From Bryum argenteum (taxonomy: Eukaryota > Streptophyta > Bryopsida > Bryales > Bryaceae): a DNA stretch of 64,000 bases. The stretch lies in contig CM073322.1 of NCBI GenBank assembly GCA_037043015.1, forward strand, positions 27,618,364-27,682,363, written 5' to 3'. Position numbers and translations under genes: made by a program. Shown in pieces: positions 10,991-64,000 of this stretch; the first letter of the stretch is position 1; each line of letters opens with the position of its first letter. The notes beneath the pieces were generated by a model. The model was not told the origin of the DNA, did no database searches, and was given only the letters and a program-made list of their open reading frames with translations.

Positions 10991-10994
10991 TTAA

Positions 10995-11257
10995 CCCCCA
11001 ATGTCGAAATCGACCATATCACTGTTCATCTGCCTGAAACGATCCATTCTGAAATCGTTGAACAATTTTTTTTAAACTTGATTTTGAGAAATCCAACCGT
11101 AGGATCTTGTTGAGAGCCATCCAATTAGTCTATCTTCCAAGTTTTATTGATTTTGACCGTACGGATCTTGACATATATTTGGTCAAAGTTCCAACTTTTA
11201 TAAAAACTTTCACTGCAGATGAATAGCACTTGATGTGGTCGATTTCGACATTAGGGG
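10995..11257. mobile_element. TTAA-flanked MITE, copy A
   Basis: A 263-bp element between TTAA at 10991-10994 and TTAA at 11258-11261. The terminal inverted repeats are about 27 bp with two mismatches: CCCCCAATGTCGAAATCGAC on the left and, reading inwards on the other strand, CCCCTAATGTCGAAATCGAC on the right. It has no coding capacity and contains the family 14-mer CCAACCGTAGGATC at 11093-11106. TTAA target duplication with a CCYT-type end fits the piggyBac superfamily. Confidence 0.85.
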
Positions 11258-12019
11258 TTAAAGATTAAAACTATTTTCTATCATGATACTTTACAGGGTA
11301 TATTCATGGAGAACAATAACGGTTTAGATTCTCGTAGTGGACGGCAACTTATTTAATGACCTTTCTGTGAGTACATGTGTTTCCATAACAAAGAGTACAT
11401 GTAGGGTATTGAAAGTATCGTTTCTTAATTTTGGCAGGGTTCCTGGAGTTGCACCTGCGTCGATTTTCATGAAACGCAATCGGTTCGGGACAATATTTTA
11501 TTGAGCCTTGCTGTCTGGCGATTGAGTTTTAGTATGTTTTTACGGGGAAAAAGGTACAAGTTTGGTTCGTGTAAGGTACGACTCATTCTCCACCACAAAG
11601 GCTTTCACTGTTGAATGCAATGATGTAGTTTAATTACGGATGCGAACATCCCCTATTATTCCGTTAATACAGGAGCCGTGGATGCAAATCAAAGTCAAAA
11701 TGGATTGAAGCCTGCATGATTTAATTCAAAACAATTGTATGGCTAATTAATCAAAGCTGTATTAGTGCAAAGTGTTATTGCGTTGTTGATGTGCTGACGC
11801 CGAGGTGACGATGACTTCTGATGGGACTTCATAGTATTAGGCTAAATTTTTACTTTTCAGTAATGTGCAAGAACAATATATCACATTTATAACAGAAGAA
11901 AACTTCGTTTGATGATGTGATAAAATGGAAGTGATGTTGACCTCAGTTGGCGTTCAAGAATGTTTCCTGTAAGCGTATGCTTTACAATAATGTGTAACTA
12001 AAGAATCTAATGCTTTTAA

Positions 12020-12279
12020 CCCCTAAATTTTCTTGATGCAAAATTGCCAAAATTACAAAATTTGACCTTCTTCTACTTCACGCCTCAAAAATTTCAGTCT
12101 AAGAATTCTCTAAAAGGTCCAACCGTAGGATCTCAAAGTTAAGTTGATATTCTACTTGCATGCAAAATTTCAACCGTTGATTCTTCTTCATTTGTGAGAT
12201 TGTAATGGTCAAAGTTGGCTGAATTTTTCTCCTGCGGGAACCTCCAAAACCCATTTCGGGTTTTAAGGAAAGTTAGGGG
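12020..12279. mobile_element. TTAA-flanked MITE, copy B
   Basis: A 260-bp element with TTAA at 12016-12019 and 12280-12283. Left end CCCCTAAATTTTCTT, right end inverse CCCCTAACTTTCCTT: about 15 bp with two mismatches. It contains CCAACCGTAGGATC at 12119-12132, identical to the 14-mer in copy A, which ties the two together although the ends differ. Confidence 0.8.
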
Positions 12280-12397
12280 TTAACCCACATTCCGCATCGT
12301 TTTTACATGGTTATTGATGAACTATGATTCGTGTCTACTCATCATTTACGGTACTAAACTTTGAACTTGGTCATGGCAGGAACGGTGAGCATTCAAC

Positions 12398-15217
12398 ATG
12401 AGCATGGTGAACGCTTTGGTTTCGGAGACTAAACTTAAGATTCGGAGGAGCTATAAGTTTCTTCGCCAAGCACCAGCGCTCGACACTTCTCACCAAATTC
12501 ATGGAGGCACGAAATTGATGACCATGGCAGAATCAAGGAAACGTGCGAATGGTGATGTCGATTTCATTCCCGAGCGTCGTTTTGAAGGTCAGGACCTCAT
12601 TCCAAGAATTCCTAATGTAATAGTTGCAGAAGCAATATGGCCGGTACTCCGTGAAGGTGATCATGACAGTCAAGTTGAAATCATGTCGAAAATGAGAGTA
12701 GTGTCCAAGTTCTGGTGTGCATTTATAGATTGTACAGATCTCATGGACAGGCATATGATGTCCAAGTATAATAGGTTGGCCCATGGAGATTTAAATTTGC
12801 TCCAGGTATGTTCACGGTATTCTCTCGTTTACTCGAATAAGTATATTGATTGGAAAGTTAGAGCATTTAGATTAATTATAGCTTTAGTAGGATTATTTAT
12901 ACTATCAAAATATATTTGTTACTACCATTGAGAAGATTTAGGTCGCTATTGTAGCCAATCTCACATTGTAAGTTTTTTTTATTTCTATATGGTGATCATG
13001 TGATGTACTGTCCACACCAAGCAACCTTATTCATTTTTACTCAGTCTCGCATTGAATACACCAATTGGTTTTATTCCCCTTATATTTGACTTTGCCTTGA
13101 ATAGCAAGCCTTTTGTTTCACTTAGTCTTGAATTGCAAGCCTTCTGTTTGACTTAGCCTTGAATTGCAAGACTTACAGCTTCTAGTAACCCCTAAACCAA
13201 GTCATTATCCCACCATAAGCCTATTCAATAATCGGGTGAATTGCAAGCCTTTTGTTTCGGCAGCAACAGATGCTATACCGTAAAAGTACATCGCTTGCGT
13301 TAAAACCCGAACCCCACCAGAAGTTAAACACGGTAAAAGGCAATAATATTATTGGGAACGTCGTGTTCCCAACATAACGTGGTTGTTTTCCGGAAACGTA
13401 GCGCTAACGTAGCCTAGTACACTAAACTCCCTTTTTTTCATAACGTAGCTATTTCCACCCTAAACGTAACAAATTTTTAAAACGTAGCTTCAGAAACGTA
13501 GCTCCCAGTGTACACTTCTGGTATTGACCATAGCATGTTTGTTCATAAATATTCTATTCTAAAAAAATCTAAAAAATTAGAAATTACAAGCCAAGAGGAA
13601 CGAAATGTTGGGAAATTATATTATGAAAAGGGTATATAAAATTTGGGAAATTATATCCCCCCAAAAAAATTATTGTTAGAAAAGGGTATTCAAAAGCTGG
13701 GAAAGGGGACGAAATCGAGGAGGTCGCGGTGCGGTTTGGCGCCCTCGCCGCAGTGGTTGAGTGCCCCAAGCGCACCAACACCTCTCCTCATCAATCCCGG
13801 ACTCCCCACACTACTTGACTTGGACTCGCACGCTCAGCGGCACAGGAGGCGCAGACTCCTTGAGCTCTGAGAACCCAGATTTTTGCTAATTTTGGTCGGC
13901 ACACGATGAGATTTTGGGCCGCGTCACTGCCCTAATTTGGGGTGGTCGCTCCAGTTGTCGCGCTGCTTTTTCTGGGACAGGTTGACAGTTGCTCTTTGCT
14001 CTGGGTCACCGATTTTGTTGTTCAAAAGCAGAAAATGCAAGTGTATCTTATAATGCAATCTCCTGCAATCTATTCACGACGAGGCCGTTTGGAAAATTAT
14101 AATGATCCTCTAGAGGATCGTGGCGTCACTTTGTCGACTTTAACTTTTTCCGGCACCATTTACTTTCGCCCTCGTTTATCTTTTCCCCATCCTTACCAAC
14201 TTTCCCACTATTGTCGTAGGTGCAGGTATCGCCGCAAGTGCGAGGCAAATTGGATTTTCGAGTGTTTGTGTTGATGGATGCTTTGTGGCTGGAATTGATC
14301 AGTCGGAGGCGGCGCGAAGTGTGCTGGCAGCAAGTTGCGCCACGGAGAGAGTTCAAGCGGGGGAGCTTTAAGAGGTGCGTCGTGTTTTCTTTTCTTTGCG
14401 GTGAATCCTCTGAGCTCTGTTCTTGCAACTTTGATGAATCTAGAGGCTGTAAACATTGTAGATGAATAATGCAGTTGAATTCTTGGGTTTGGGTTGAACA
14501 AGCATGGCGGCTTGGAAGTCTAGGAATTCTTGGGAATATCGCTATACGAAAGGCGATCGGTATGTCGTATCCTCCTCCAAGCTCTCCAACGAAGCATGAC
14601 AGAGAATTACTAAATTCGACGCGCAACGAGAGGTGTTTGAAGAAGTCACACCGTCTAGCACAAACAAAAAGAGAAATCACGTCGTCATTCACAAGGACGT
14701 GGACGGAGAATTTTTGTTGGATTCCGAGGTATCTGATGTAGTTGAGAGGGCAAAGAGGTGGGATTCGGTGACAAAACTTGTCTCAGGTTTCACGCAAGAG
14801 ATGCTCCTCATTGCCGATTTAATGTACCGAACTGAGTACCAACTTACTTCACAACTGAATTCTTGCCTTTCCAGTAAAGGCTTGAAAAAAGTAAACCACG
14901 TAATGGAGGCAATCCACCGGCTGGAGACCAAGTATGGAAACGAATCTAAGAAAGCGATTCTAAAGAAGGTTTTGACATTATTTTTCAAGGGACTAGATGG
15001 AGAGGCCGCCCCGGATGCTCTGATGCACCAATGGGCAACCTGCCGGGATTGGCAATGCAAACGGGTGAGTTTCGCCCATCCACTCGATCTTTTTGACAAG
15101 TCTGGTCTGGAGGTGCTCATGAACAAGATCGAAGCGGAGGAAGGTTACTCACACGTTCGGGACGTGGCTTTGGCCATGGTCAATGCTGCTCAACACATGT
15201 TGGAGGGTAGCAGTTAA
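12398..15217 (+). CDS. F-box-like protein, possibly disrupted
   Basis: The first coding exon (12398-12805, donor GTATGT) offers two starts, ATG 12398 and ATG 12524; the second (ACCATGG context) gives MAESRKRANG as N-terminus. It encodes an F-box-like helix set (IPNVIVAEAIWPVLRE, then MRVVSKFWCAFIDCTD). The last coding exon is 14603-15217, preceded by an AG acceptor, and joins in phase 0, for 298 or 340 residues. Its product is helical and unrecognised, with a KRWDSVTKLVSGF segment and end HMLEGSS. An alternative reading starts at ATG 14504 (MAAWKSRNSWEYRYTKGDRY) in the same frame, but a TGA at 14597-14599 separates it from the main exon. A polyadenylation-like AATAAA lies at 15434. F-box proteins usually recruit substrates to SCF ubiquitin ligases; the assignment and the exon join are inference. 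Confidence 0.5.
13090..13262. repeat. Short tandem repeat of 31-32 bp
   Basis: About three imperfect copies of a unit like CTTGAATTGCAAGCCTTCTG lie at 13090-13180, with a further partial copy near 13239-13259. They lie in the proposed long intron of the F-box-like gene. Confidence 0.65.
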
Positions 15218-16283
15218 AGAAGTAATCAACTAAGTCTGGTCGGTGTCTCGAGGCCCAAGGAGTTCAGACAAATTTTGGTGGGAGTGACTCCTTTCAGTTT
15301 GTAAAACCCTCTCGCTCATATTCTTTTTTAGTCTTGGTAGTTGATACGATCATTTTTTCAATTATTGCAGTATAGCCAGCATATTTGCTGCAGACCTTTA
15401 TCCACTCGTCATGTAGTCATGTACTATACCATCAATAAAACTGGCGCTTCTTCATACTCAGACTACTAGTTCAGAATGTCTTGTTGTTGTTGGTTGGAAT
15501 GACGAGTGCGAAACATGTTGTCAATTACAATTTTCGCCACTCGAGTATGTGTCTCTTTTCCGGCCTTCTTCAAGTAAGAGTCCGCTTCCTTCTCGTGCCT
15601 GAAGATGCAAAAAAGAATTCCATGCTGCGGCTTGCCTTAATGCTCGCTTGAATTTTGTGTTGTTCATGTTGATGGGCCAATAAGCTTACCTGATTATCTG
15701 ACGCGGAGTGCCTTCATTTCTTGGATGTAGCTCATGTTAATTTTGACAAACGGAGTGGAAAAATGCTTCGCGAAAAACTCCACATATGATATGCGATCCT
15801 TGCTTGGTGAAGGCAAGAAAATATTTTCTATATGAAGGCAAGATTGTATTCATCGGTACTTTTGAGCAACCAAGCAAAATAAATTTTAAGAAGGGGCAAC
15901 ATATTAACATGCCCATTTGATTTTTTCTTGTGCAGTGGAAGAATCTACTCAAACTCTCATTAATTTGAAGACATTTATAGTAAAAAAAATGTTATACAAG
16001 TATTACTATTGTTGATACATCATTAACAACTAATATGTATAGTTCAAGAAATCAAATAAATGATGGTCACTTACAAACCAATATATTGAAGTTATTCAAT
16101 CTAGGTTGTTGGTTTTATGTTTATTACAAAGTTGTAGGCTTTTGGGCACTTCTTGTCATTGCAAGCTACATTAATGTTGTACATACTTTCAATGACTGTA
16201 AGATTTTGAAAAATGATAAGTGATGCTATTTACTTAAAAATCTCAAAGACAGATTGTATCTTCCATCAAGATGCATTGCTTAC
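15218..16283. other. 3' region and spacer
   Basis: The 3' untranslated region of the F-box-like gene probably ends near 15460. The rest is AT-rich without a supported gene. Confidence 0.4.
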
Positions 16284-16287
16284 TTAA

Positions 16288-17197
16288 CCCCTAAACGTTT
16301 CGATCCATTGGGCCCGCTGGAGTAGGGTCCAAAAACGTAAAAAATGTCAAGGTCAGTAAAATAATGTGAGGGCAGTAAATCTAAAATCCAACCGTAGGAT
16401 CTTGATCTCCATTGTCTAAAGATTGCATGGGCAAATATTTGTGCCATTTGGAGTTGGGATGGGGCTTGATCCACTTGATTGAAGGCGAAAAAGGGAGCCC
16501 GAAATGGAGGGGCGATCACTAATTTTGGACTTTGGAGTGAAAAGTCGTATTACAAATTGCCCCGAAAGCAAAAATGGCAACTACAAATGGGTGAGGAATC
16601 AAGTAAAGAAGCTAATCAAAAAAAAAAAAAAAACAAACATGCCTCTTTCCAATTGCACACAATCCTACTTGAAATGGAAGTCACTTGGGATTCTTGTTTT
16701 TGGTGCTTGGTATTCCAAGGTTGCCCACACAAGCTCTTGTCCTCCGTGGACAAAAGATGATGTAAGGTGGGCGGGCTTTTTTTGAAAAGAACAGAAAAGA
16801 TGAATCAAAATAGCTTGCAAGTCATAAACATCATGCCACATGTCCACCATGATAATAACAAAGCCAAGCGCATGCGATCAGCGCTTGTCGAAGCTCAAGG
16901 CTCTCTTGCCCCATTTCAATGCCTAATCGCCCCATTTCTATGCCCAAATGGCAAAATTTCATACCGAAATAGACAAAACTCCTCTCATGACAAAAATGCA
17001 GCCCACTAAAATCGCTCTTCAGTAAAATGTAGGAATGAGGTATAACAACGGGGTAAGTGCACGAGAACTACACCCATTTACCCTTGAGGGAAAAAAAACG
17101 GCGGATGAAAAACAGCGACGACGAGAAGACGGGAAGAGTTTCAACATCCCCTGCTTCATCCAGAATGTCGATTTTCGACATTCGGCCCGCTTAAGGG
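16288..17197. mobile_element. TTAA-flanked element, copy C
   Basis: A 910-bp element with TTAA at 16284-16287 and 17198-17201. Left end CCCCTAAACG; right end inverse CCCTTAAGCG; about 10 bp of inverted repeat. It has the 14-mer CCAACCGTAGGATC at 16388-16401 and, next to the right end, the near-palindrome TGTCGATTTTCGACA at 17166-17180. The last 100 bp match the left end of copy D in inverse orientation. No transposase frame is visible. Confidence 0.75.
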
Positions 17198-17201
17198 TTA
17201 A

Positions 17202-34500: not shown

Positions 34501-35852
34501 TATTCACTTTCTTTCAAGATAGAAGTATCGTTGCAAATCCAATACCAAAACATATGGTCTAAAATCTTCCTACTAGAATTTGTTTTCCTTCATCTTAAGA
34601 TCATATTATGTAAAAAGAATTCATGAAAACATCTATTTGATTTCTCACAATTGCCTCCCAATGGCAAAACATGCCTCATGTTTGAAAACTCAAAAGCAAG
34701 AAGCTATCTCCACTAAAATGCATGCCATTTACTTGTACCTCATTGTATGGATCTGCAATTTATACCACACAAACTATACTTGATATGAAATCCAACCCAA
34801 GTAATTTCATCCAAAACCAAGTCAAGATAAAGAAGTCATGGCTCTTCAAAGTTGCTGCAGTCATTTAGAATGTCAATTTTCCACATTCAGCCCAGTTAAA
34901 AGTTAAAGCAAGATTATGACATACACGCTTATGGGGTTTGCCAGCCTTTATACATCATACCTAGAAGCTAATACTTGAAATTTGTATGTGTTTTTGCAAG
35001 ACAGTCGTCCGTTTCAGAAAGTGCTCTATTTGATTTCCTAAACAATGAGTGGCATTTCAAGCCTGGCCCTACTCCGGACTCTTGCAATCTCCACTTTGTT
35101 GTAGACTTCCAATTCAAATCACCACTTTATCGAAAGGTTCGTACCCAAAATCTTCATGTTTATGTAATTATTGCATCCACTTAATTTTCTACATATCATC
35201 AAAAAAATTCTTAGATCTTTGTATAGAGAAATTTAATATTTGTTACAAGCAATATTTAATGTGTCTTGTCAGTATTTAATGTATCTTGTCGATATTTGAT
35301 GTACCTTGTCTTGTAATAAACTTACATAATGATGGAAAATGCTCTCTTAATATGTATTATTCACTATTATGATTCGTGCATATGGCGATGTAGGTAGCGC
35401 ACTTGTTCTTCGAAGAAGTCCAATCACGCCTTGTAGGATCTTTTGAAGACCGATGCAAGATTGTGTTTGGTCCAAGTGTGGCAACCATATCAAGGTACTC
35501 ATTAATTGATTTTATGTGGTTAGGAACATTACAAGGAAAACTGAGTCCCTTTCCAACTTTAAGTTCCACAAATGATAAGGAATTCTGAAACTAAGAGTTC
35601 GTTCACATGTACAACTTAAAACTTCACATGTACATGTACAGATGAAATACTAGAATCCTATAGTGACATTTCCTTAGCATATTTCAAAAGTTGAAATTTA
35701 TCACCTTGCATCGAAAGAAGACAATATAGGAGAAAGAAGGCCACTTTACTACAAGAGTTGATTCTCATCTAAATCAACCCACATATGTTCTAGTAATGTT
35801 TTAAGTACAGATGTGAAAACTACATGTTTTCAGGAAAGACGACAACAAATAG
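31518..35852 (+). CDS. COQ10: Coenzyme Q-binding protein COQ10, START domain
   Basis: Five exons give 225 residues: 31518-31750, 33531-33723, 35005-35136, 35394-35494 and 35834-35852. The first exon encodes a basic, Ser/Thr- and Leu-containing leader suited to mitochondrial import, then GVGDGDEGSGLSKHFEEDRV as in plant COQ10. The START-like domain follows (YSQEQVYDVVVGVDMYEEFV, PWCQKSRVL, ELEIGYKMFVERYISHVE, NEWHFKPGPTPDSC, FFEEVQSRLVGSFEDRC). COQ10 binds ubiquinone in the mitochondrial inner membrane region and supports respiration and Q synthesis. Introns 1 and 2 are long (1.8 and 1.3 kb); intron 2 holds an eroded TTAA-type element. The last exon supplies only a few residues, so the exact C-terminus is less sure than the rest. 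Confidence 0.92.
34443..34902. mobile_element. Eroded TTAA-type element in COQ10 intron 2
   Basis: The right end, TGTCAATTTTCCACATTCAG followed within about 20 bases by TTAA at 34903-34906, is a degraded version of the right end of copy C. An altered family core (ATCCAACGGTAG) lies at about 34449-34461. The left end could not be placed, so the start given is only the first recognisable point. Confidence 0.5.
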
Positions 35853-36930: not shown

Positions 36931-39390
36931 TCACCTAGGCGAGTCAGTCCTGGGCTCATTGTTGCCATGGATAGTGTACAATTGTGTGGCAATAGCATCA
37001 AGTCCGGGGGAGGGAGGACGATTCACAACAATGTCGCCATTCAGCATGCCGACCACATGAGACATCGGAAACCGATTGGAGGGATCCTCTTGCACGCACC
37101 ACAAGGCCACAAAGATCATGCCTCGGAGCACCAGCTTATCATCATCGCTGAGCGCTTGTGCATCAAGCCGCGGATCCGCAATCTCGAGAAGATGGTCAGG
37201 ACCACTCGCAAGCACAGCAGATGCCCAACTGGGCAAGAATCGCTTCTCCTCTGAAACCCCGCTCTGGGTCCAGCAGCTTCGGCCGCTCACAAGCTCCAGT
37301 AGTACAACTCCAAAGCTGTACACATCCGCTTTCGACGTCACCGTCACCGGCACCGACTTGCTCCCCGGCACCGGCTTGCTCCATTCCGGCGCCATGTATG
37401 CCCTGGAGCCCCGTTCCGTTGCAGTAGTCAGCCTGTGAGAGTTGAGGGTCAGGGACATGAGACCGTAGTCTACAAGACGAATGTTCTCGTCGGAGTCGAT
37501 CATGATATTCTCCGGTTTTACGCCACCGTGAATGATGTGAGATGCGTGGAGATATGCAAGGCCACGAGCAGTTTCCAGTGCGATCGTCCGGCGCTGCTGC
37601 ACGTGCATTAGCAGGCTTGAGTCTTTCCGAAAGAGGTAACAGTCTAGAGATTGGCCGTCGTCCACGAGCTCGTAGACTAGCATCTTGTGTCTGCCTTCGG
37701 AGCAAAAGCCCCGGAGGGGGACCAGATTCAAGTGTGAGAGGCTTGCCATTGTCGCTACTGCAGCTAGAAACGCCTTCTCTTCTATGTTGTCGTCCAGCCT
37801 CTTGATTGCAGTCTTGCTCTGACCAGCGTAGACCGAGCTCCGACCATGGCCAAGTCTCCGGTTGAAATTCCCGGTGCTCTCCTCGAGCTCCTTGTAGGAA
37901 TATTGTCGTGGAAGTTTGGCAGGTTCAGATGGTGGAGCAGGCTTTCCTGTATCAACATCGTCATCATCCAATTTCCGTCGCTTCGAGAATAGCCACCACG
38001 CTGAACCGTGTAGAAGCAGAAAAAGAAAAGCTCCAGCTCCAACTGCAAACCAAATTGCAGCTTTCCTCCGAGAAGATTTTGTTGAAGACGTTGGTACTGA
38101 TGGCACTCTTAAGAACAACGTCTGCGTCTGGCTCTGGTCGGAGACATTTCGAATTGTCAGAACGGAAGTAAGATCCAAGAGACAAGGTCCCGTCTTTTTT
38201 GAGTCGTCTCTTATCAAATGAAGGGCGTTCATGCAAGTGCAGTCATTTCTGCATTGAGACAGACAGTTTTCAGCAGTTGTGTCACCACTGAACAACCCCG
38301 GTTCCAGATACGTCGTGCCAGTAACATTAACAAAATGATCTTCACAAGTATTCCCAGGTCCTTCACAAGTAAAATCACTTGTCTGATTCGATTGTTTAAA
38401 GCCTTGCGGACACTCGCAAATGCCATTGGGCGAGCAAATGCCAAAGGCTCCACATGCACCCGGAATCTCGCACCTATCATCGAACAACGACTGAATCGTT
38501 CCGTCGGAGGTATTCCTAAAATCCAAACTTCCATTGAGTTGCAGCTTCAAGTAATCCCACCCACCGGTTGATTTCGTGACATTGTCAAACCACTCAGGAA
38601 TTGTCCTATACAACAAAAGAGAGGACTTCCCACGGTAGCTGATATTCTGCCACAGTGTCAAATTTCTATTCGATGATATATTCATGAAGAAATCCTTTCC
38701 TGCCGAGTACTCGTATTTCGATAGTGCCGCTGACGTCCAAAAAGTTCTGCCTTTGTTGCCGTCAGTTTTGACGACAGTGTCACTAGGGTTGTTGCAACCG
38801 TCCCAAATCCATGGCCCATTCATGCTGTACGCTATGTAAGGGCAACCGTCGTTACTGAGAAACAATGAAGTGTTTTTCTGTTTATCCAAAGCTAACGCCG
38901 TGCTCCAAATAGTCTCGCTACTTCCACTACTACGGAGTTCTAATCCGACACTTCGTGAGAAGTTGAGGAAGCAATTCTGAACATACCATCACAGCAGATT
39001 AGGGTATTGTAAAGCAAGGAACAAGCAAAGTTCGGACCGGAGACGGCAACTTACCGGACTTGTGTTACTATCGACGATGGTGGGACTGAAGAAGTTGCCA
39101 ACCCAGGTGGTAATATTCCAACTGTTATGATACACCACAGCCGCACAAGAAGACCTCGAGTGGTTGGTGAACAAGAGATTGAAGCTGAACTGTCTATCAC
39201 GCGAGTCGAGGATTCCCCGCTCTCGATCAGTACCAGTGGCGGTCCAAGCTGTATAATTTACATCATTATTTAGCACGATAGACAGTGGTGACTGCTGTGC
39301 CCTAACCTCAATCTTTTGGCCCAGAAACAAGCACAGTACGAGGACCAGCACTCGCAGCTCCTTACTAGCCATTCGATCCACTCCACTCAC
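36931..39390 (-). CDS. S-domain-type receptor-like kinase, predicted pseudokinase
   Basis: Two exons, 39390-39055 and 38976-36931 with a 78-nt intron, give 793 residues. A signal peptide follows the second Met (MASKELRVLVLVLCLFLGQ). The ectodomain has a lectin-like region with many NxS/T sites (WDGCNNPSDT), an EGF-like cluster (CGAFGICSPNGICECPQGF) and a PAN-like Cys-rich part. One membrane helix (AAIWFAVGAGAFLFLLLHGS) precedes the kinase. The kinase has the Gly loop (LGHGRSSVYAG), the VAIK Lys (TAIKRLD), DYG for DFG and MAPEW. The catalytic loop reads IIHGGVKPENIMID where S-domain kinases have HGD or HRD, so the catalytic Asp is Gly. Plant receptors of this type sense extracellular signals; this one may work as a scaffold or through a partner kinase. 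The rest of the frame is intact, so it is not simply decaying. Confidence 0.88.
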
Positions 39391-39411: not shown

Positions 39412-41397
39412 AGCACTTCCGTTGAACCTTTACCGACAAATCCCCGGATATTTTCGCATGTTTTGGAAAATCCTGTTGCTCAGCTCTACAATTACATCAA
39501 ACGACAAGCCCCTCGCATGCTACCGCTAGTCTTTCTAAGCCATAACCTCTGAGCTGACAAGATCTCAAAGAACGAAAAAAACACCCGTTGAAGATGGAAG
39601 CAAAGAAAAAGAGAGCTTGTACACGCTTCCGTTTTCTGCGTCCAGACATTGCGGCACGCACTCAAGGGCACCCAGATTCAACACCGACATCTCGATCGAC
39701 GACGACGACTGATCAGTACTGATGGATCAGAGCTTCAAAGTGAAACTCCGTGCTATCCTGGTCATCTTGCAGTGCAACCCTAGACTGCGCCCGACTACAG
39801 TAATCACCGAAAGCTGCACAAGACATACGCCCTGATTCCCAGTCCGGGTGGAGCGGAATCGGTAATGGACCACTGCGCCGACAATGCACAACAAGGAAAA
39901 ATGGTAATGTGGGGGCCCACGAATCTTCGGTTTGATTCCATTGCCTGGAAATCGGCAGCTTGACTTGTGCATCCATGACGCGCAGGCAGCTCACCACACA
40001 CAACTGCTCACGAAGCTCCGAGCCTCTGCCTTCCGGTCGTCCATGTCTGCAGTGCGTAGCTTCCTCGATGAGCTTCATCCGCCCTCGTTCGCTATTTGAA
40101 TGAAGTTTGGAACAACGCCGATGATATCAAGTGCTCAAGTGGGAATTTATGGCTGTTGTTGAACATTTCGTCTCGTTTCGGTCGTATCAGAATCAAAATA
40201 ATTGGCGTGTTAGATTATTTTCTTTAAATTTCATACAGTGTTGACTGAAGCGGAAGTATGGCTTCCTGTAACGGCAACTGGAAAAGTCCAGAATGGCATG
40301 CAGACCAAATAGTACCGGTAGTCAATAAGTCATGTCTGCAGGGTCTTAATGTGTGTGTAATCTGTAAAGTCCTAATGTGTGTGTAATCTGTAGGGTCCTA
40401 ATGTGTGTGTAATCTGTAGGGTCCTCATTTGTATAATTGGTAGGGTTCTGATTTTTGTAATTTGTAGGGTCCAAAATTGAAAAATGGTTTCTGATATTGA
40501 ATATGAACCCAAATCTCTCAATGAACCGATGAAATATGGTATGGTGCTCTATAATGGCTCAATTTTCAGCCCGAGAAATCTATAGGGATGTCACCGGTAC
40601 AAGCAATTTTCGTGCATGGGGAAAACTAGTAGAAGAATAGAGCAAGTGGAATAATCATTTTTGGACTCTTCTACAATGAGTTATGAATTTTTGAACTTGA
40701 AAGTATAGGTGTTCCTAAAATGGTGCCCTAAAAAGATACCCTATAATGTCCGCGGTGAGTACATGATACTATTGCGTGGGGAATCTATTATGTACCTCTG
40801 ACTCAAGATTACTAGGGCTCCATTTTCGGCACTGCGCCATTTTTGGCACTGCTACCATAATCATGATTTCAACTTGATGTATCTGGTGTACAGTAGGTCT
40901 AAGACAAAATGGCGTTTTTGAATTTGTTGTGAGAAAATTTTCATTACTGGCAACCTTGAAAGTCTTTTGAGAGCTCAAGAATTGGTATTTTACCACGAAA
41001 TTTTTACCGAAGACTTGTCTTTGAGTTTATTACATGTATGCCAAATTTCAAAGGCCAAAAGATTCACTGAAGAACGGTTATTCAAAATCTACCAACATTG
41101 GTAGTTGTGAGACTTTATTTACTACTCCCAACTTTGACACCCTCCCAAAGATTTGTTCTTTTTTCTTTATCATTATCTTTATCTTTTTTTTTACCCATGT
41201 AATTCTTGGAAAAAAAACCCCTTTAGGTTAATGACATATGATAAAAATTCCAAGGCCAAAAGATTAATACAATAAAAAAGACATTCATTGGTTGTTAAAT
41301 TGTTGGTTAATAAAGTCTTCCAAAATTACTTGTATACTTTTCAGTGTGTGTAGCTTTTTAGATACTCATGAAAGTCGTCTTGTGGGGTCAAGGGTAG
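39412..41397. other. Spacer upstream of the receptor kinase
   Basis: GC-richer up to about 40080, presumably the kinase promoter; overlapping minus frames at 39713-40078 are not recognised and may be chance. Beyond 40480 the sequence is AT-rich without a supported gene. Confidence 0.4.
40343..40472. repeat. 26-bp tandem repeat
   Basis: Units GTCCTAATGTGTGTGTAATC plus CTGTAG recur at 40343, 40369, 40395 and 40421, then decay over one or two further copies. Confidence 0.85.
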
Positions 41398-41767: not shown

Positions 41768-41824
41768 ATTTGAGCAAAGAGCAAATCCTTTTGTATCCAT
41801 ACGTATGGCTTACTACCTTATTAA

Positions 41825-42568
41825 CCCTTCTTTAAATCAAAAGTGGGTTTTTGCGATTTTGGACAGCCTAAATGAAGAGCTCAAAAGTAATATTTCCCCT
41901 GAATTTTTGATCGCAATCTTAACCCTTAAGCGCCCACAGTGTCGTTTTTCGACATTCTGGGTGTGAGGCTCCGTCCTTGGTGCACAACCCCGCTTTCATC
42001 CCATCGATTTTTCATCCGCCGTTTTTTTTGCTCAACTCCTCGGTGGGTTTACTCTACTCCCTCCTTGGATAAATAGTAAAAACCTTGATCCTCAATTTGT
42101 GAGAGTGGGCGAAAGAGATTTTTCATGAAAGTTTTGGTGGTGTGATCTTCACCCCTTTTTTGCATGGATCTTGAAATCCATACCTCCAAATGGCATGCAA
42201 CTTAGAGGTCATACTAATTGCCATGCTCCAAAGAAGATCCTACGGTTGGATTTTCCGTTTTCATCTTTTATTTGTTTTTACGCAATTTTGAAAAAATCAG
42301 CATAATTACCAATTGTTAGGAGCTTTACCCCCCCTTGGGCGTTTAGGGGTTAATTCAGGGGAAATATTACTTACTGAATCTCACAGACGGTAAACATCCA
42401 ATGGCCAGTTCTTTAATCAATAACTAAACCTAGGCTTAAGTGCAAGATCTTACGGTTGAAAGTCTGTAATAAGTATAAAACTTCAGTTCACACCCTCAAA
42501 GTGCACATAGATAAGTAATTGCATTTTTGAGGTTTCAAGCTCCAAAGAACACCAGGATAATTTAGGGG
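41825..42568. mobile_element. Possible outer TTAA-type element around copy D
   Basis: TTAA followed by CCCTTCTTTAAATC at 41821 and TTTAGGGG followed by TCAA at 42561-42572 could be the ends of an older family member. A degraded family core (GATCTTACGGTTGAAA) lies at about 42447-42462. Copy D would then be nested in it. The ends match poorly, so this is tentative. Confidence 0.3.
41923..42349. mobile_element. TTAA-flanked MITE, copy D
   Basis: A 427-bp element with TTAA at 41919-41922 and 42350-42353. Left end CCCTTAAGCGCCCA, right end inverse CCCCTAAACGCCCA: 14 bp with two mismatches. It carries the 14-mer in inverse orientation (GATCCTACGGTTGG, 42236-42249) and TGTCGTTTTTCGACA near the left end. 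It is inverted relative to copy C, whose right end it matches, including TTTTTCATCCGCCG. Confidence 0.8.
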
Positions 42569-42572
42569 TCAA

Positions 42573-47015: not shown

Positions 47016-47240
47016 CCCTTAAAAGTCCCTTGGGGATAGTATGTACGTTGTCGTATAATTAGGATTTGCTACCAACAAGAAACTCTAAACTGGAATTGTA
47101 ATAGCTCACTAGAACCGCATTAATTCAAATGTCAACTTCTTCTTTGAACTCAAACCCATTAAAGGTGTGCATTCACTCCAAATACAACCAAAATACACCG
47201 TATTCTACTGGTCGCCACGGCACGCTCAGACCTTTAGGGG
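47016..47240. mobile_element. TTAA-flanked MITE, copy F
   Basis: A 225-bp element with TTAA at 47012-47015 and 47241-47244. Left end CCCTTAAAAGTC, right end inverse CCCCTAAAGGTC: 12 bp with two mismatches. The right end resembles the right end of the copy at 61.2-62.3 kb. Confidence 0.75.
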
Positions 47241-47879
47241 TTAAGGAGAGGTTTTTACAGGGCTGATTGAAGTCCTTCGCTGCCTGCCTATTGTGATACA
47301 TGTTTCAATTTTGTTTTCGATTTTCACGATGTCTCAATGCACAAACATTAGGATTTAAGGTATGTTCCCATAAACATCAGGCCTTAAGGTATGATTCCAC
47401 ACAGCTCTTTGCAAAGAGCATACATTAAAATTTAGCATCCTCCCATTTGTTAATTAATACACATTCTCAAAAACTTGGCTTTGGTAGTTACTAACAAATG
47501 TAGACATGTGGGAACACACTTTATTAAGGAGATAAAACCTTTTACCACCATATGTAAGGTCAAATGGCTCTTGGAAAAACAATTAAATTGTTTGATTTAG
47601 TAGTTCAATTCATAAGTGTGCAAAGTATGGAAGTTACTTTCAGCATACCTCCATGTGAATACCCACCTAGGAACAAGAATTTGAAGAGCCTCATGTCTAA
47701 TTTTGTACCAAACACGGATTTTTGGTTCTCAATAAACTAGTCACTCTTTCTACAAGAAGAGTAAAGAACCTTTTCTTGAACTTTGACATTATGGTCTTAC
47801 AATCTGTAAGGAATTCGAATCTAAGATTTAATATACATATACACACACAAGTAAGATACTAAATACCACTGTTAAAATT

Positions 47880-47976
47880 ACGTCAAAATTTGAAAATCTC
47901 ACCTTACATCAAAAGAGAGTAGCTTTTGGTAGTTTCAAGACTTTTTGGCTGTTTTGAGGCTATTTCGATTCAGGGG
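47880..47976 (-). mobile_element. End of a further TTAA-type element
   Basis: GGGG at 47973-47976 followed by TTAA. Read inwards on the minus strand it gives CCCCTGAATCGAAATAGCCT and then CAAAACAGCCAAAA. This aligns without gaps to the left end of copy G once its nested insert is removed. The partner end was not found; the left limit given is where similarity fades. Confidence 0.55.
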
Positions 47977-48359: not shown

Positions 48360-49030
48360 GTTCACTTCACGTGTAAAATTTGCAAATACATCTATTTAAT
48401 TTGTGAATGTGCTCATACATCTTGCATGTAAAACGTACCAATACATCTCACTTATAGAATGTACCAATACACCTCACATTTAAAACCGTGCTAATACATC
48501 GCACATGCAAAACGTACATGTCCTAATACATCGCACGTGCAAAACACACTAAGGTAGACGATGCTAAATCCGTGCATCTCCTTAAACCACCCACTCTAGA
48601 TTCTTGCCTACTTTCTAGATTTCATGTAGAAGAATGTGCCTTGTGTGCACATGGAGCATGTGAACGGTTTTAGGTAATGTGGTACATGTCACTTCTGAAT
48701 TTTTTATTTATTTTTATAAATGCTCAAAAAATATCAAAAAATATGGAAACTTCTTCATTTTTTCGTATTTATAATTGAAAAATATTGATTCACATATTCC
48801 AACTTTCCAATTGTAGTGTAGTCCTTAAATGCACGGATTTAGCATGGTCTACCTTATTACCTATCATGTGTAAAATGTGCCACCTGACATGATTCTCTTA
48901 CGTGCAGATTTCATGTGTTGCTCTTGTATATACATCGCAACGTTTTGTTTTTACCTTAATAATGTGGTGAGGTTACTACCTTCCTATGAGAATTAGCATT
49001 TTGTGCACCCACATCAATTAATACTTCCAA
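48360..49030. repeat. First copy of a composite repeat with a short 26-bp array
   Basis: Contains four to five degraded units of the 26-bp repeat (like CTAATACATCGCACATGCAA) at about 48415-48550. A conserved tail at 48920-49015 includes ATGAGAATTAGCATTTTGTG. The same order of array and tail recurs at 49.76-50.54 kb. Confidence 0.65.
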
Positions 49031-49759: not shown

Positions 49760-50535
49760 TTCGTGTAAAATGTGCTAATATATGTGGGAAACATGCTCAC
49801 ATCTAAAACGTACTTGTACATCTTACATGTAGAACATGTCAATACATCGCATGTGTAAACGTGCAAATACATTTCACGTGTAAAACGTGCTAATACAAGT
49901 CATGTGTAAAACGTGCTAATACAAGTCACGTGTAAAACGTGCTAATACAAGTCACGTGTAAAACGTGCTAATACAAGTCACTTGTAAAACTTGCTAACAC
50001 GTTTCACGTGTAGAACTTCACGTGTAAAATGTGCTGATGCATTTCACGTGTAAAACATACTAATACATTTCACATGTAAAACATGTTACAGCATTTCAAG
50101 TGTAAAACGTGCTAATACATTTCACATGTAAAACATGTTACAGCATTTCAAGTGTAAAACATGCCAATACATTTCACGTGTAAAACTTGCTAATACATTT
50201 CACGGTGTAAACCGAGCTAATGCATTTCACGTGTAAGACGTGCTAGTACATTTCACATGCGAATATGTCTCACACGTAAAACGTGCTAATACGTTTCACA
50301 TGTAACCCGTGCTAATATGTTTTGCATGTAACCCGTGCTAAACTTGTAAAATGTGCTAAACCTCTTACGTGATGCTCTTATGTGTACTTTTCATGTGTTG
50401 TCCATGTATGTGCATCCCACTCATTGCTTATATGCATTCATCTCACACCATGCTAAAGTTTTGTTTTTGCTTTTATAATGCGGTGAGGGTCCTAGCTTGT
50501 TATGAGAATTTGCATTTTGTATATTGACATCAATC
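49760..50535. repeat. Second copy of the composite repeat with a long 26-bp array
   Basis: About 20 tandem units of 26-27 bp at 49790-50345, consensus close to GTGTAAAACGTGCTAATACA plus a variable hexamer. Many copies have CACGTG or AACGTG. A tail at 50395-50535 (ATGAGAATTTGCATTTTGTA) matches that of the first copy. Confidence 0.85.
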
Positions 50536-56089: not shown

Positions 56090-56091
56090 TA

Positions 56092-56927
56092 TGCTCTCTT
56101 TGCTTACCATCACTGTAACAATCTCTAATCTCCTACGTGACCTCTAAATTGTTTCAAAACAATGTACAATATCCGACATAGAAGTTCAACAATCAACATT
56201 TCACTTTCTATTTTGCATAGATTGAACCATCCTAAATCTAGAACTTTCAAAATATAGTTCCGGTGATGCAGGGGTTCGATCTCAATTTTTTTGTTCATCT
56301 TTCGTCTTCTTAAACATACCAATCACTGTGCAATAAATTCAGAAATTTTTAAATCATGACCAAGTCCACTAATATAGTCATCTTCACCATAATTATCAGG
56401 ATGTAAAATTCTTCATCATGCCTTATAAAATGTAGAAATGTCGAGCTTAAAAATACCTGCTTTGCTCCAAGTTTCTCAGGCTTCGGATACAAAAGATTAA
56501 TATAGTGGCAACGTAGAACGTTCTGTGACGTTCAGAGCCCAGGCGTGTGTCAGACTCTTGGTCATAACCAGATCCAAGGACCATACAAATCATCCCATGA
56601 AAGAAAACTGTGAAAAATAACGATTAGTTAATGCATGGCAGAAATAATGAGGAGAGCAGTAAGCACCCCCAAACTTACTTTACGTGTTCTATAATGCTCA
56701 TACACTACCCAATTGGGCAACTATTGCTGCCACTCGCTGATTTTACACACCTGCAAATCAAACCTTCTGTTCCAAACCTGCTATAACACTTTTCTAGAAT
56801 TTAAGAGAAAGCAGCGTATCAGGGTAACTAGTAGGTTGACACAAAATTCCACAAGGGAATATCTAGACCCCTATAATATTTTTGTAGACTGTACATTCAA
56901 TATATCGTATACGTGGTTCAACTATGA
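56092..56927. other. Spacer between convergent genes
   Basis: No gene is supported; it should contain the 3' untranslated region of the gar2-related gene. I looked here for missing exons of the 52.3-kb gene and found none. Confidence 0.4.
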
Positions 56928-59900: not shown

Positions 59901-60136
59901 GACGGGTTTCCACCATTCGTTGTAGTCATGAAATTTTCCATGGTTGGGCGCGAGGGTACCACCGTAAGACCGGTCCTGCTCCCATCTTTCGTCTTAGAAG
60001 CCTTTCTCCAAGCATACGCAGCTGCAGCGGCAGTAGCAGCAGATCGTATGGAGGATTTATCAGTACTATAAGCAGTCGAATGACCAAGTAGCTGTAATCC
60101 TTGAGCTTTCTCCGACAATCTTGAAGAGTCACTCAT
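56928..60136 (-). CDS. Plant gar2-related coiled-coil protein
   Basis: Seven exons on the minus strand give 705 residues: 60136-59412, 59241-58944, 58693-58418, 58245-58072, 57950-57762, 57579-57466 and 57269-56928. The N-terminal 130 residues are low-complexity. A coiled coil follows at about 130-190 (EEERLLQLEQQLVRMEEELR-like; Leu/Glu heptads), then the family core ALYSVAAEHGSSAHKVHTPA, RRLARFYKYAF, GLVLVSRACGSDVP and LTYWWSNVVVLRESISQA. Later blocks are GLECGCLPALNRM, GDLLMLPKDILLDAEIRKEV and LNLPLIRRVLANFGPDVFSP. The tail has a Lys run (GKKKKNEG). Arabidopsis relatives are annotated as nucleolar protein gar2-related, with no established biochemical role. All exon joins keep the frame, so the gene looks intact. 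Confidence 0.88.
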
Positions 60137-61164
60137 TGTCGCTCAATCAAGTGCTGCCCTGCAAGCGCAGCCGAAGTCAAACCAGAGTACCAGTACCATC
60201 AATCCAAAAAAGAAACTGCCCTGACACCAAATAAACTCCAATAAGCATCTGTAAACTCAATGCAGTTACTAAAGAGTTAAAAATTGGTCAGACTACAATA
60301 ACTCCGTGGCCAGCTAAAACAACCACCAATCTCCCAAATCCGTAATCATAATCATCACTACTACAAATCCTCGCAACTATGCAAGACATGATAACAAGAA
60401 TGCAGACCTCTCAAAAGATCACCGCAAATCGACAGAAGAGCTTCAATTGTAAGTCCCTTACTAAAGCATCAGGATCAGAATGCAGATGTCAAAACAACCG
60501 GTACTTCACAAGCTAAAATCTTAAGAATCTCAATTGGATCAAGGCCAACCCTAAGATGCAAACTCCAAGACCACCATTTGTCCCAAAGACACTAGATTAG
60601 CTGATCAGAATCAGCTCGTCACTAAAAGAAGAATGCGATGAACAAATGTAGCCAGATAAGCCCCACCAATTCATCTCTCTCTTGTTAGAATGGCATAAAT
60701 TGCATAGATCGGAAAGAGGGATGTGGAACTTACGATGAGAAGCAGCACATTGACGGCGAGGAGGTCGAGTGAAGGCAGATCGGAAGCAGGGCGTCGAGAG
60801 TGGTAAGGATCCAGACAATGCTAGCAATGTGGGCGATCAGGAAAGGCGTACGATGGAGCAGGGCAAGCTCGGATGCAAGCAATGCGGCAACCCCAAAGGA
60901 AGAGAGCAGGCAACGGAGGGAAACAGCGGCTGTCTGGGGGGAAGAAAGAAAGCTTCACTTATCATCCATCGTCTCTGTTAGTACTTTCATCTTGCGCACC
61001 GCTCTTCATCCACGATCTTAGCAGATATATTTTCGTTTCATTCATCCCCTCTACTTCATCTGGATTCTCACTCTGATTCCGTGCTTCAGTTTCATCCAAA
61101 TTCTCTGTTTGCATGCTTCAGTGTTTTCTTCTGAAATCTTTACTTGCATGCTTCAGTGTTTCAT
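60137..61164. other. Leader and promoter of the gar2-related gene
   Basis: Probably leader sequence, perhaps with an intron to about 60730, then a GC-richer promoter stretch at 60740-60960. Plus-strand frames there are short and unsupported. Confidence 0.4.
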
Positions 61165-61168
61165 TTAA

Positions 61169-62303
61169 CCCCTACTGGCGAGCCTCGCCTCTAAGGGCGG
61201 GACAGTGGAGGACCTACGCCCCACTGCCCGCCCATACTTGCTGCCCGCATAAAATAATTCGGGAGTAAATTTGCCCCCTAATTTTTCGTTGTTGATGTCA
61301 CCAATGTCATCATGGGACACTTCCAAAGGTAAATCGGGGTCGCATATCCAATTCTCAAACTCAAAATTTGAAAAAAAATATTGTAAGGCTCCCAAAAATG
61401 CAAAAATCATATTTACCCAAATTTTTGCCGGGCAGCGAGTATGGGCGGGGAGTGGGGCGTAGGCCTTCCACTGTCCCACCCTTAGAGGCGAGGACTAGCG
61501 AGCAGCCTCGAAACAGCCAAAATTGCCCTATTTTCATGCAAGATGCAAATTTTTTGAATTTGACAAGTTTTGAAATATCTAAGAGTAGGATTCATTATTT
61601 AACTTGTACATGTATACCAAATTTTAGATTCAAATTCCTCACCATTTGTGTGATCTTGAATGTTCAAGGTTTAAACTAAAGTTTTTTTGTGTTGTAGAAT
61701 GGCAAAGTAATGTTTTAGGGGCCAAAAAAACCATTTTTGGTAGAATGTGTGGTTTGAGGCTCTTCAAATTCTTGTTCCTTGGTGAGTTAGGAACATGTCT
61801 GTGTAATTTTTACCCTCATATGACCTGTAAAACCTATAGAATTGCTTGATTATTCACACAGATGTATGCTAAATTCATATACAAAGGCCCATTTTTCAAC
61901 TATTATTGACGTAGGTAGAAAATTTTTGGAATGAAAATCCAAACGGTAAAATTAAGATCATGCCTTACTACATCTTCTCCATGTACAAAAACAAAACTTG
62001 GAAAAAAGAAAATCTTAGTATTTGGCAAGTTTTTGAAGTTTCTGCATTTAAGTCAATTTTGGCCAGATTTTGAGAATAAATGAGCACATACGGAAGTCCG
62101 AGAAAATTTGGCCAGATTCCAAATAGTGTTTTTAAACTTTGACCGTGAATATCATCTGAAGTATAAGGAATTTTGAAGCATAAGATGACTTTTTGGGAAG
62201 ACGTGGAAAAATTGTATAACTTGCAAAGGGTTTCAACTCATGCAATCTAAATAGTAATCCAAATGCAAAGCGACCCGATTTGGGCCTTACTCACCTTTAG
62301 GGG
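61169..62303. mobile_element. TTAA-flanked element, copy G, with nested insert
   Basis: 1135 bp with TTAA at 61165-61168 and 62304-62307. Left end CCCCTACTGGCGAG, right end inverse CCCCTAAAGGTGAG: 14 bp with three mismatches. The left arm is interrupted by a smaller hairpin element (61183-61493). Without that insert the element is about 815 bp. No transposase frame is present. Confidence 0.8.
61183..61493. mobile_element. Mutator-like MITE nested in copy G
   Basis: 311 bp with terminal inverted repeats of about 66 bp: left starts CCTCGCCTCTAAGGGCGGGA, right inverse starts CCTCGCCTCTAAGGGTGGGA. It is flanked by a 9-bp duplication with one mismatch, ACTGGCGAG (61174-61182) and ACTAGCGAG (61494-61502). 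Long inverted repeats with 9-bp target duplication are typical of Mutator-like elements. It has no coding capacity. Confidence 0.8.
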
Positions 62304-64000
62304 TTAAATTCTAGCTTGCATGCTTTGAATTTATCTCGATTCTTTGTCCTCCATTCTCAATGTATATCATTGACTATTGAAATTCGTCTCTACATGTAGG
62401 AGTCTTTTTCTATTCACATTTGTGTGCAATCTACCCACTCGTAGCGTTGTGTCTTTCCTAGAACGTATGATACATTGGAGGACAAAAATTGTTTATAATA
62501 AATTGATCTAGTGAAGGGCATGTTATTGCTAAAGTGATATAGCACCGGAATAGGAGTTGGGGGATAAGAATTGGGAACAGATGATGAGGAATTGTGAAAG
62601 GAAGGGTGCCAATCAATATCGGAGGACATGGAACCAAGAACAAGAGACAAGTTATTATTTTAGAAGAGCATAATGAATAGAACCAAAGGAATGGGAGACA
62701 TGGGATAATCTTCAAAAGTCCCAAATAAAGAGTTGCCATGTCGAGATGTAGGGGACCTTACTTGTTATTTTTAAAAGCTTGAGCACACATAGAAAATGCC
62801 TTTTAACCCTAAAAGACCTTGATGGGAGAAGAAAAAAATAAAAATAAAAAAGTAAAAAAAAATGGATGAAGGGCTGAAAACTTTGAAGAGCCATTAAATC
62901 CTCATGTTTATTGTAGTCTTGACAGAATCACTTGGATTGGCTTCCCTCTCAAGTCTACTTTGTGTGGTAAATATTGCATACCCATATAATGAAGTATGAC
63001 TTAGTAATGGCAATTTTGTTTTCGGCTTTCAAACATTATGCCTCTCTTTTTAGTATAAGACAACTCTGTCGAATCAAATGAAGGTTTTCAATGATTTTAC
63101 CACATAGGTACATTCTCAATATGGATTATAACAACTTCCTAGTTGAAGGATATTTGTTTCAAATAACTCTTGTATTGCATTTGCATGGAGGATTATAAAC
63201 CAAAAAAATGAAAAAGTACATGGTTTTTGTGGGGCTCTATCTTCAATTTTCACTAGATTCAATTTTATTTTTTATTTTTTATTTTTTGGAATGAGTTCCA
63301 ATTAAAGTCTGGTTTTTTTTTGCAGGTGAAAACCTCGACTTAATCAAAAATACTTTGAATATAATGCAAGGATTAAGTGCAATGGCTGTAATTTTGGACT
63401 AATTTTTGTTTGTTACTTTTTTTGGTAGTTTTACTATACCAAGGCTATAATCTGAGCCACAAAATTTCTTTAATGACTTATTGATTTCTTTATGATTGAT
63501 CTTAAAATGAAGGTGATCAACTTTCTATTTTAAGTTTTTTTTTATATATAATGTATCAGCACTTTTGATAGAATCCCCTCAACTATAAATTGGTTCGTAC
63601 CATCACATAAAATCAGTTTGTCTTGCTAAAGTCCAGTGAAGACTTTCAAAATTTATCCTCTACTATGGTCTCTTTTTTCTTTTGTCCTTTCAATGAAACA
63701 TATCCCGTGAGATTTCATATGACTTTACTATGGTCAAAGAGACCATCCCACGAATATGCCACGACTTTGACATTGTGCTATTTTTTGAACAAACATTATT
63801 GAACAAACATCAAGTGAAATGATGGTGCAACAACACAAGTTTCAATCAAGAAGTTATATATTGGAAACTTGAAGAAAAAGTTGTGATCGTGCAATGTAAT
63901 CCATGTACTCCATTCAGAAAGTTGGTGTAGTTTTTCACTTTGACCACCTCAATTACCATATCAATTCCACTTCAAAAATACAGTTGTTGCGTCCTTATAA
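62304..64000. other. AT-rich spacer with one possible element end
   Basis: TTAA at 62803-62806 followed by CCCTAAAAGACCTTGATGGG resembles the left end of copy F, but no partner end appears before the window ends. The rest is AT-rich with T and A runs and no supported gene. Confidence 0.4.

What the first reader, a model, noticed from the sequence alone, without database searches (positions are those of the whole stretch)
10991..62307. Family of TTAA-flanked MITEs with piggyBac-like ends
Six elements (10995-11257, 12020-12279, 16288-17197, 41923-42349, 47016-47240, 61169-62303) have TTAA on both sides, start CCCCTA or CCCTTA and end in the inverse. Sizes run from 225 to 1135 bp. At least three more partial ends exist (34902, 47976, 62807). 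TTAA target duplication plus CCYT-type ends is the piggyBac hallmark, a superfamily to my knowledge rarely described in land plants. The density (one per about 7 kb) suggests a large amplified family driven by an unseen transposase.
Basis: partly seen in the sequence, partly recalled or inferred. Interest (0 to 1): 0.72.

Follow-up and report, generated by a model that had tools for sequence, protein, structure and literature searches.

The report
Recently mobile piggyBac transposons in moss
The short repeats in this window are cut-down copies of piggyBac jumping genes, a family studied mostly in animals, and the same plant genome (probably a moss) carries many larger copies, some nearly identical, that encode the matching enzyme.

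Summary
All six elements lie at the stated coordinates between TTAA and TTAA, and 11 of 12 ends begin CCCCTA or CCCTTA. TTAACCCYTAA occurs 10 times in the window against 0.06 expected, and 28,902 times genome-wide against 745 for the reversed pattern.

The window's genome is a 258.8-Mb plant, probably a moss. At least 116 places match the piggyBac transposase (PF13843). In 13 of 20 fetched, the gene sits in a TTAA-bounded element of 4.5-6.5 kb with similar ends. The window's 910-bp element is a 5.8-kb transposase-bearing element with 4.9 kb deleted from its middle, 95% identical on both sides. Nineteen of 20 copies of the 12020 family keep TTAA on both sides, and one empty site holds a single TTAA. 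Three transposase copies on three chromosomes differ by 0-1 base in 1,149.

Corrections: there are several families, not one. The 1,135-bp element contains a nested 311-bp element of another kind. The 41923 element sits inside an older piggyBac relic. Many autonomous elements also carry a conserved upstream ORF with no known domain.

The parts
10995..11257 (.). 263-bp piggyBac-type MITE, low-copy family; TTAA at 10991-10994 and 11258-11261
   Evidence: among the 40 scored of 532 candidates two other copies span it (90%, positions 1-271; 85%, 3-271), and its internal part is in many more
12020..12279 (-). 260-bp piggyBac MITE, high-copy family; left end resembles the 3' end and right end the 5' end of autonomous element L025
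   Evidence: (4,337 first-look candidates, 40 scored, 4 of them including itself at 98-100%)
16288..17197 (-). 910-bp internal-deletion derivative of a 5.8-kb autonomous element like that at C9:2510893-2516701
41923..42349 (.). 427-bp piggyBac MITE, recent high-copy family, nested in an older element
   Evidence: 493 candidates; 40 of 40 scored, itself included, are 97-100% identical
41825..42568 (+). older decayed piggyBac-type element that hosts the 41923 insertion; target TTAA at 41821, mutated TCAA at 42569
   Evidence: both ends resemble the ends of autonomous L025
47016..47240 (.). 225-bp piggyBac MITE, very recent family
   Evidence: 962 candidates, 40 scored; the 41 rows, itself included, are 97-100% over 233 bp
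   Evidence: (pair I4)
61169..62303 (.). piggyBac-type MITE of about 815 bp, interrupted by a 311-bp nested element
   Evidence: relatives L050, L051, L052 and L054 have TTAACCCCTRA ends without the insert; L051 and L052 share one flank; L053 reads TTGACCCC
61183..61493 (.). nested foldback element (73-base inverted arms), 9-bp duplication ACTGGCGAG / ACTAGCGAG at 61174-61182 and 61494-61502; Mutator-like by these features (inference)
   Evidence: (pair I2)
34846..34905 (.). decayed right end of a 16288-type element
   Evidence: score 26 against a shuffle maximum of 12

Best explanation
The elements are non-autonomous members (MITEs) of several piggyBac transposon families in a plant, most likely a moss. 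A piggyBac (DDD, RNase-H-fold) transposase made by larger relatives elsewhere in the genome binds the CCCYTAA ends, excises the element at the TTAA and inserts it at another TTAA. Shown here: the transposase genes, the shared ends, the TTAA duplication, an internal-deletion origin for one MITE, and recent near-identical copies. Inferred: that the enzyme is expressed and works today, that each MITE family uses the transposase with the most similar ends, and the hairpin chemistry, which is taken from T. ni piggyBac.
For: PF13843 domains: 116 scored of 776 candidates, all 116 over the cut-off, and by my count of the table 93 of 116 without a stop inside. TTAA-bounded elements with inverted ends around the transposase: 13 of 20 loci, the two ends agreeing at 12-16 of the first 16 bases; 14 with L049. 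Homology of one of them to T. ni piggyBac 6x67 (E 1.4e-28) and piggyBat 9c0f (E 3.8e-28). Catalytic Asp positions conserved in 21, 20 and 21 of 21 domains. The 910-bp MITE equals the two ends of L049, 95% identical, with 4.88 kb missing. TTAA on both sides of 19 of 20 copies with varied bases outside. Empty site with a single TTAA, 103 of 125 identical across the joint. End motif 39-fold over the reversed-pattern control genome-wide. Near-identical copies: transposase, MITEs.
Against: No autonomous parent was found for the 10995, 41923, 47016 and 61169 families; their link rests on ends and target site. For 12020 it rests on about 20-35 end bases of L025, and other TTAA-ended repeats matched better. 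Of 52 joined-flank tests only one gave a clean empty site. The other spanning rows were three from L044, whose flank is another copy of the element, L019 against L046 (no TTAA), and L020 against the window (TATGTAAA). A spanning relative for the 41923 site (L057) is weak, 70%. Seven of 20 transposase loci gave no accepted TIR pair. No expression or transposition data.
Confidence: 0.96

Rival explanations
1. The elements belong to another superfamily with TTAA targets (Kolobok or Sola3).
For: Kolobok also duplicates TTAA (PMC6004289, passages); Sola3 is recalled from memory.
Against: Kolobok ends are RR / AGGRR (same passages), whereas these are CCC. The transposase between such ends is PF13843, and the 910-bp element derives from one of them. 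No Kolobok or Sola transposase was searched for.
Confidence: 0.02
2. The duplication is really TTA (PIF/Harbinger) or TA (Tc1/mariner) and the element starts ACCCC.
For: A single TTAA-flanked copy cannot tell these apart, because TTAA is a palindrome.
Against: The outer T (left) and outer A (right) are fixed in 21 of 21 full-length rows while the next base out varies; a TTA or TA duplication would leave at least one of them free. The query that fetched these copies contained TTAA, a mild bias. The coding relatives are PF13843 elements.
Confidence: 0.01
3. The MITEs are moved by more than one piggyBac transposase, some of them cross-mobilised by families whose ends only partly match.
For: Ends differ among the six elements beyond the first 7-8 bases. 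Four families (10995, 41923, 47016, 61169) have no parent in hand. The fetched transposases are diverged (34-68% identity to L014, apart from the near-identical L022).
Against: Nothing excludes it; it refines the main reading rather than opposing it.
Confidence: 0.6
4. The pattern is chance TTAA plus short inverted ends.
For: TTAA is common in AT-rich DNA.
Against: 10 against 0.06 expected; multi-copy families for five of the six.
Confidence: 0.001

Closest known systems
piggyBac of Trichoplusia ni (IFP2) and piggyBat of Myotis lucifugus
   Same: TTAA target, CC[C/T]-type ends, DDE_Tnp_1_7 transposase with the DDD triad, C-terminal Cys-rich segment
   Different: Elements are 4.5-6.5 kb rather than 2.4 kb (PMC2874221, passage). 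Many of the open frames run 830-1,330 codons, against PDB chains of 594 and 578 residues, with a long N-terminal part. Many carry an extra conserved upstream ORF. The host is a plant.
Coral CMITEs (piggyBac/TTAA MITE superfamily)
   Same: TTAA-flanked MITEs tied to piggyBac-like coding elements, nesting and tandem insertion
   Different: CMITEs are about 100 bp with 13-14-bp TIRs, in Acropora (PMC2872659, passages); here 225-910 bp, several families, in a plant
Wuneng and Microuli (TTAA-duplicating MITE / MSITE)
   Same: small TTAA-flanked elements
   Different: known to me here only from one passage in PMC2872659; that they are from rice is recalled; no link to a coding element was seen
Angiosperm MITEs classed as PiggyBac
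   Same: class name and TSD/TIR criterion (PMC10004981, passage)
   Different: the passage describes classification by TSD, TIR and internal sequence; here a coding parent is in hand for one family
Kolobok T2-MITEs of Xenopus
   Same: TTAA target (PMC6004289, passages)
   Different: AGGRR ends; assigned to Kolobok, a different superfamily

Membership tests
piggyBac superfamily | TTAA target-site duplication | tested here: met
   19 of 20 distinct copies exact on both sides, two of the 20 sharing one flank; empty site with one TTAA
piggyBac superfamily | terminal inverted repeats beginning CC[C/T] | tested here: met
   12 of 12 window ends begin CCC; 13 of 20 autonomous loci have such a pair
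piggyBac superfamily | DDE_Tnp_1_7 transposase encoded by full-length relatives | tested here: met
   116 of 116 scored matches over the cut-off; L049, parent-type of the 16288 element
piggyBac superfamily | DDD catalytic triad | tested here: met
   21, 20 and 21 of 21, at positions aligned with 6x67 and 9c0f
piggyBac superfamily | C-terminal Cys-rich domain | tested here: inconclusive
   Cys-rich tails are visible in the three transposases printed; weak zinc-finger hits below cut-off
piggyBac superfamily | precise excision through TTAA hairpins | not testable with these tools
   needs an excision assay
MITE | short, non-coding, multi-copy, derived from a coding transposon | tested here: met
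   five of six elements multi-copy; internal-deletion origin shown for one of six
Kolobok | RR / AGGRR ends | tested here: not met
   ends are CCC
PIF/Harbinger or Tc1/mariner | TTA/TAA or TA duplication | tested here: not met
   outer T and A fixed in 21 of 21 rows

The most novel reading that the evidence does not exclude
Mosses hold a two-gene lineage of piggyBac that is active now. Besides the transposase, the element makes a second protein (ORF1) with a conserved domain of about 98 residues (consensus ...LLDPxYLRSLPVRKKSRKWPxVPQANNYRHHFYRQAAHILGW...) that matched nothing in Pfam and nothing better than E 0.11 by sequence in the PDB. This second protein helps transposition or evades silencing, and it lies behind an unusually large burst of coding elements and MITEs in a land plant.
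Probability: 0.3. Interest if true: 0.75.

Novelty: new member of a known kind. Interest (0 to 1): 0.58.

Why it matters
In the two plant reviews of which I saw passages, piggyBac appears as an animal-derived tool, as a name in a superfamily list, or as a MITE class (PMC10794571; PMC10004981). Here a plant genome has 776 first-look transposase candidates with 116 confirmed, families moved so recently that copies are nearly identical, and 28,902 end motifs, enough for about 14,000 elements if they pair. That makes it testable whether piggyBac is a native, working transposon in plants, whether a plant-adapted transposase could serve as a seamless-excision tool, and what the extra upstream protein does.

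Tried and rejected
Considered and rejected: chance; Kolobok; TTA or TA duplications (see rivals).

A 2.3-2.6-kb reading of L001/L002 (TTAACCCTTAAACG... to CCCCAAATTCCC) was dropped: an outer pair CCCTTAAACGCCC matches at both ends, and the inner TTAA lies at the same internal place in both copies. For L009 the top-scoring pair was a 7.3-kb one; I took the second, 4.9-kb pair because it agrees with L010.

I first took most of the 58 same-scoring ORF1 copies to lack a transposase, because only 8 had a listed PF13843 match. L061, one of the unlisted ones, contains the transposase start, 100% identical to L058 over 186 bp. The list is capped, and that idea was dropped.

Joining ORF1 to the transposase by splicing: a donor-like CAG|GTRR and an acceptor-like YAG just before ATG or CTG of the transposase frame are present in 6 of 6 loci examined, but that intron does not join the two frames. 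Left open. My note gives TTG there; the letters are CTG.

Joined flanks of the 41923 element found one spanning relative, but its alignment near the joint is poor, so it counts only as weak support. Rfam and tRNA scans of the window gave nothing.
Full report
THE OBSERVATION. All six intervals are as stated: TTAA directly on both sides, and inverted ends beginning CCC (12 of 12 ends), CCCCTA or CCCTTA in 11 of 12; the left end at 10995 is CCCCCA. TTAACCCYTAA occurs 10 times in the window, all at these element ends, against a mean of 0.06 and at most 1 in 100 shuffles. TTAACCCY occurs 15 times against 4.3 expected.

THE GENOME. The window is C2:27618364-27682363 of a 258.8-Mb assembly in 25 contigs. 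It is a green plant: 90 chlorophyll a/b-binding matches. For one LHC protein, apart from chains of a multi-domain entry (9vfj), the best PDB chains are 8htu_U and 7xqp_a, which I recall as moss (Physcomitrium) structures. The assembly size is close to the 262 Mb listed for the moss Hypnum curvifolium in PMC13120521 (passages). 'Moss' is therefore an inference.

THE TRANSPOSASE. Searching that genome with PF13843 (DDE_Tnp_1_7) gave 776 first-look candidates; 116 were scored and all 116 exceed the cut-off, E from 7.4e-82 to 1.4e-69. By my count of the table, 93 of 116 have no stop inside. I fetched 20 with 4-kb flanks (L009-L028). In 13 of 20 I accepted a pair of TTAA-bounded inverted ends around the transposase, 4.5-6.5 kb apart; the other seven gave no convincing pair. 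The two ends agree at 12-16 of the first 16 bases, and 12 of 13 pairs start CCCYTAA; L016 starts CCCCTCA. This was a search for the best pair among the TTAA sites near each gene, so it is biased towards finding one; for L009 I took the second-best pair. The protein of L014 matches T. ni piggyBac (6x67, E 1.4e-28) and piggyBat (9c0f, E 3.8e-28). The piggyBat active site is DDD (PMC11707139, passages). The corresponding positions are Asp in 21, 20 and 21 of 21 domains.

FROM TRANSPOSON TO MITE. The 16284-17201 stretch (910-bp element with both TTAAs) has 17 full-length copies, itself included, at 92-100% among 41 rows (606 candidates, 40 scored). Of the 23 partial rows (one 46-bp row dropped), 11 lie within 6 kb of one of the 116 transposases, against a chance of about 0.6% each; two of the 11 are the two halves of one place, so this is 10 of 22 places. 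None of the 17 full-length copies is so placed. That one place, C9:2510893-2516701, carries both halves. Fetched within L049, it is TTAA-bounded, 5,809 bp with both TTAAs, with a transposase domain inside. The window element aligns to its first 624 and last 306 bases at 95% identity, with 4,879 bases missing between and a 9-base imperfect overlap at the breakpoint. The window element is therefore an internal-deletion derivative of an element of this kind. For 12020, the right end resembles the 5' end (34 bases) and the left end the 3' end (19 bases) of autonomous L025, which keeps one polarity; other TTAA-ended repeats near L012, L015 and L023, not shown to be autonomous, matched these ends better.

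TARGET SITE. In 21 full-length rows of the 12020 family among the fetched loci (20 distinct copies, as the window copy appears twice; 15 partial rows and 2 at locus edges were left out), 20 rows have exact TTAA on both sides and the next bases out are mixed; the exception (L048) reads TTAG and TTCA, and two copies (L035, L039) share the same flanks. The search query contained TTAA, a mild bias. The outer T and A are fixed in 21 of 21, which TTA or TA duplication would not give. For empty sites, 52 joined flanks were tested against the fetched DNA, with 6 spanning rows. The autonomous element in L019 sits in a repeat whose relative in L018 runs straight through a single TTAA, 103 of 125 identical. 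The others are not clean: three rows come from L044, whose flank is another copy of the element; L020 against window 17490-17401 has TATGTAAA; and L019 against L046 lacks TTAA. For the window's 41923 element, one spanning relative (L057) is only 70% identical. Copies that abut and share one TTAA occur: C3:10781398-10781630 with 10781627-10781859, and C10:9469892-9470159 with 9470156-9470406.

ABUNDANCE AND AGE. TTAACCCYTAA occurs 28,902 times genome-wide, against 745 for the pattern read backwards. The family tables list only the best candidates. For 47016, the 41 rows, itself included, are 97-100% identical over 233 bp (962 candidates, 40 scored). For 41923, 40 of 40 scored are 97-100% (493 candidates). 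For 12020, 4 of 42 rows are 98-100%, 36 are 84-85%, and two are 82% and 75% (4,337 candidates, 40 scored). 10995 has two other copies over its length among 40 scored of 532. Three transposase copies on three chromosomes (L058-L060), picked because their scores were equal, show 0, 1 and 1 differences in 1,149 bases. These bursts are recent; whether movement continues is not shown.

STRUCTURE OF THE WINDOW ELEMENTS. 61169-62303 is composite. The exact 1,143-bp unit has no other full-length copy among 40 scored, while positions 336-1143 and 13-338 match different sets of places. Positions 61183-61493 are a foldback element flanked by ACTGGCGAG / ACTAGCGAG. Five relatives lack it: L050, L051, L052 and L054 have the TTAA-CCCC end, L053 reads TTGACCCC, and L051 and L052 share one flank. 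The 41923 element is nested in an older relic, 41825-42568, whose two ends resemble those of L025. The relic at 47661-47976 belongs to the 61169 family, and the end near 34902 to the 16288 family; the end at 62807 was not matched to the four ends tried.

AN EXTRA ORF. A conserved segment of about 98 residues lies upstream of the transposase frame. A tblastn with ORF1 of L014 against 21 transposase loci finds it in 11 other loci, and ORF1 of L025 adds two more, so 14 of 21 with L014 itself, five or six of them weak. Twenty-six columns are invariant among six sequences. A whole-genome search gave 326 candidates, 150 scored, 58 of them with one identical score. Of the 116 listed transposases, 34 have it 1.0-1.7 kb upstream on the same strand, and none has a listed one in another arrangement within 5 kb; both lists are capped. 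It has no Pfam match at E up to 1 and no PDB match better than E 0.11. Whether it is a separate protein or an alternative first exon is unresolved.

LITERATURE. Searches covered the open PMC library for combinations of piggyBac with moss, bryophyte, Physcomitrella, liverwort, hornwort, land plants and plants, for Hypnales genomes, and for TTAA MITEs. I saw the listings, which for the large sets were partial (25 of 314, 20 of 205, 15 of 141), and passages only of the papers cited. None of the listed titles or abstract openings is about native piggyBac transposons in a moss, but subscription papers and Repbase are outside the library. [quoted passage not shown] probably inactive' (PMC2874221), PiggyBac among superfamilies found in all groups including land plants (PMC4438587), a PiggyBac row with 1,230 entries in a fern repeat table (PMC6890710), and angiosperm MITEs classed as PiggyBac (PMC10004981). 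The superfamily in plants is therefore not new; the scale, youth and coding parents here are what stands out.

VERDICT. Real, correctly interpreted, and of solid interest as a native plant piggyBac system; a new member of a known kind, with an unexplained extra ORF as the most novel lead.

Noticed in passing
L014:6376-6669, L020:6436-6729, L025:6421-6714 and others (upstream of the transposase): Conserved ORF1 domain of about 98 residues with no Pfam match and no convincing PDB match, found in the same orientation upstream of 34 of 116 listed piggyBac transposases.
   Followed up: partly
window 61183-61493: 311-bp foldback element with 73-base inverted arms and a 9-bp duplication, nested in a piggyBac MITE; looks like a Mutator-type MITE.
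   Followed up: partly
window 6120-7430: Two adjoining open frames; 6465-7430 has DUF4218 (E 1e-25), by recall a companion domain of CACTA-type transposases; 6120-6464 had no Pfam match.
   Followed up: no
window 36931-38988: Intact-looking receptor kinase frame (Pkinase E 2e-33) with weak S-locus and lectin matches.
   Followed up: no
window 49797-50341: Tandem array of a 26-bp unit (TAAAACGTGCTAATACATTTCACGTG-like), with a related array at 48415-48517 and another 26-bp array at 40335-40472.
   Followed up: no
G000 contigs C5 (8.16-8.41 Mb, 14.73-14.76 Mb) and C2 (25.06-25.09 Mb): Dense clusters of weak chlorophyll a/b-binding (PF00504) matches, possibly ELIP-type gene arrays (inference).
   Followed up: no
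window 10995 ends, 16288 right end, 41923 left end: A subterminal palindrome of the form TGTCGA...TCGACA recurs, complete or nearly so, near the ends of otherwise different families; possibly a transposase or host-factor site.
   Followed up: no
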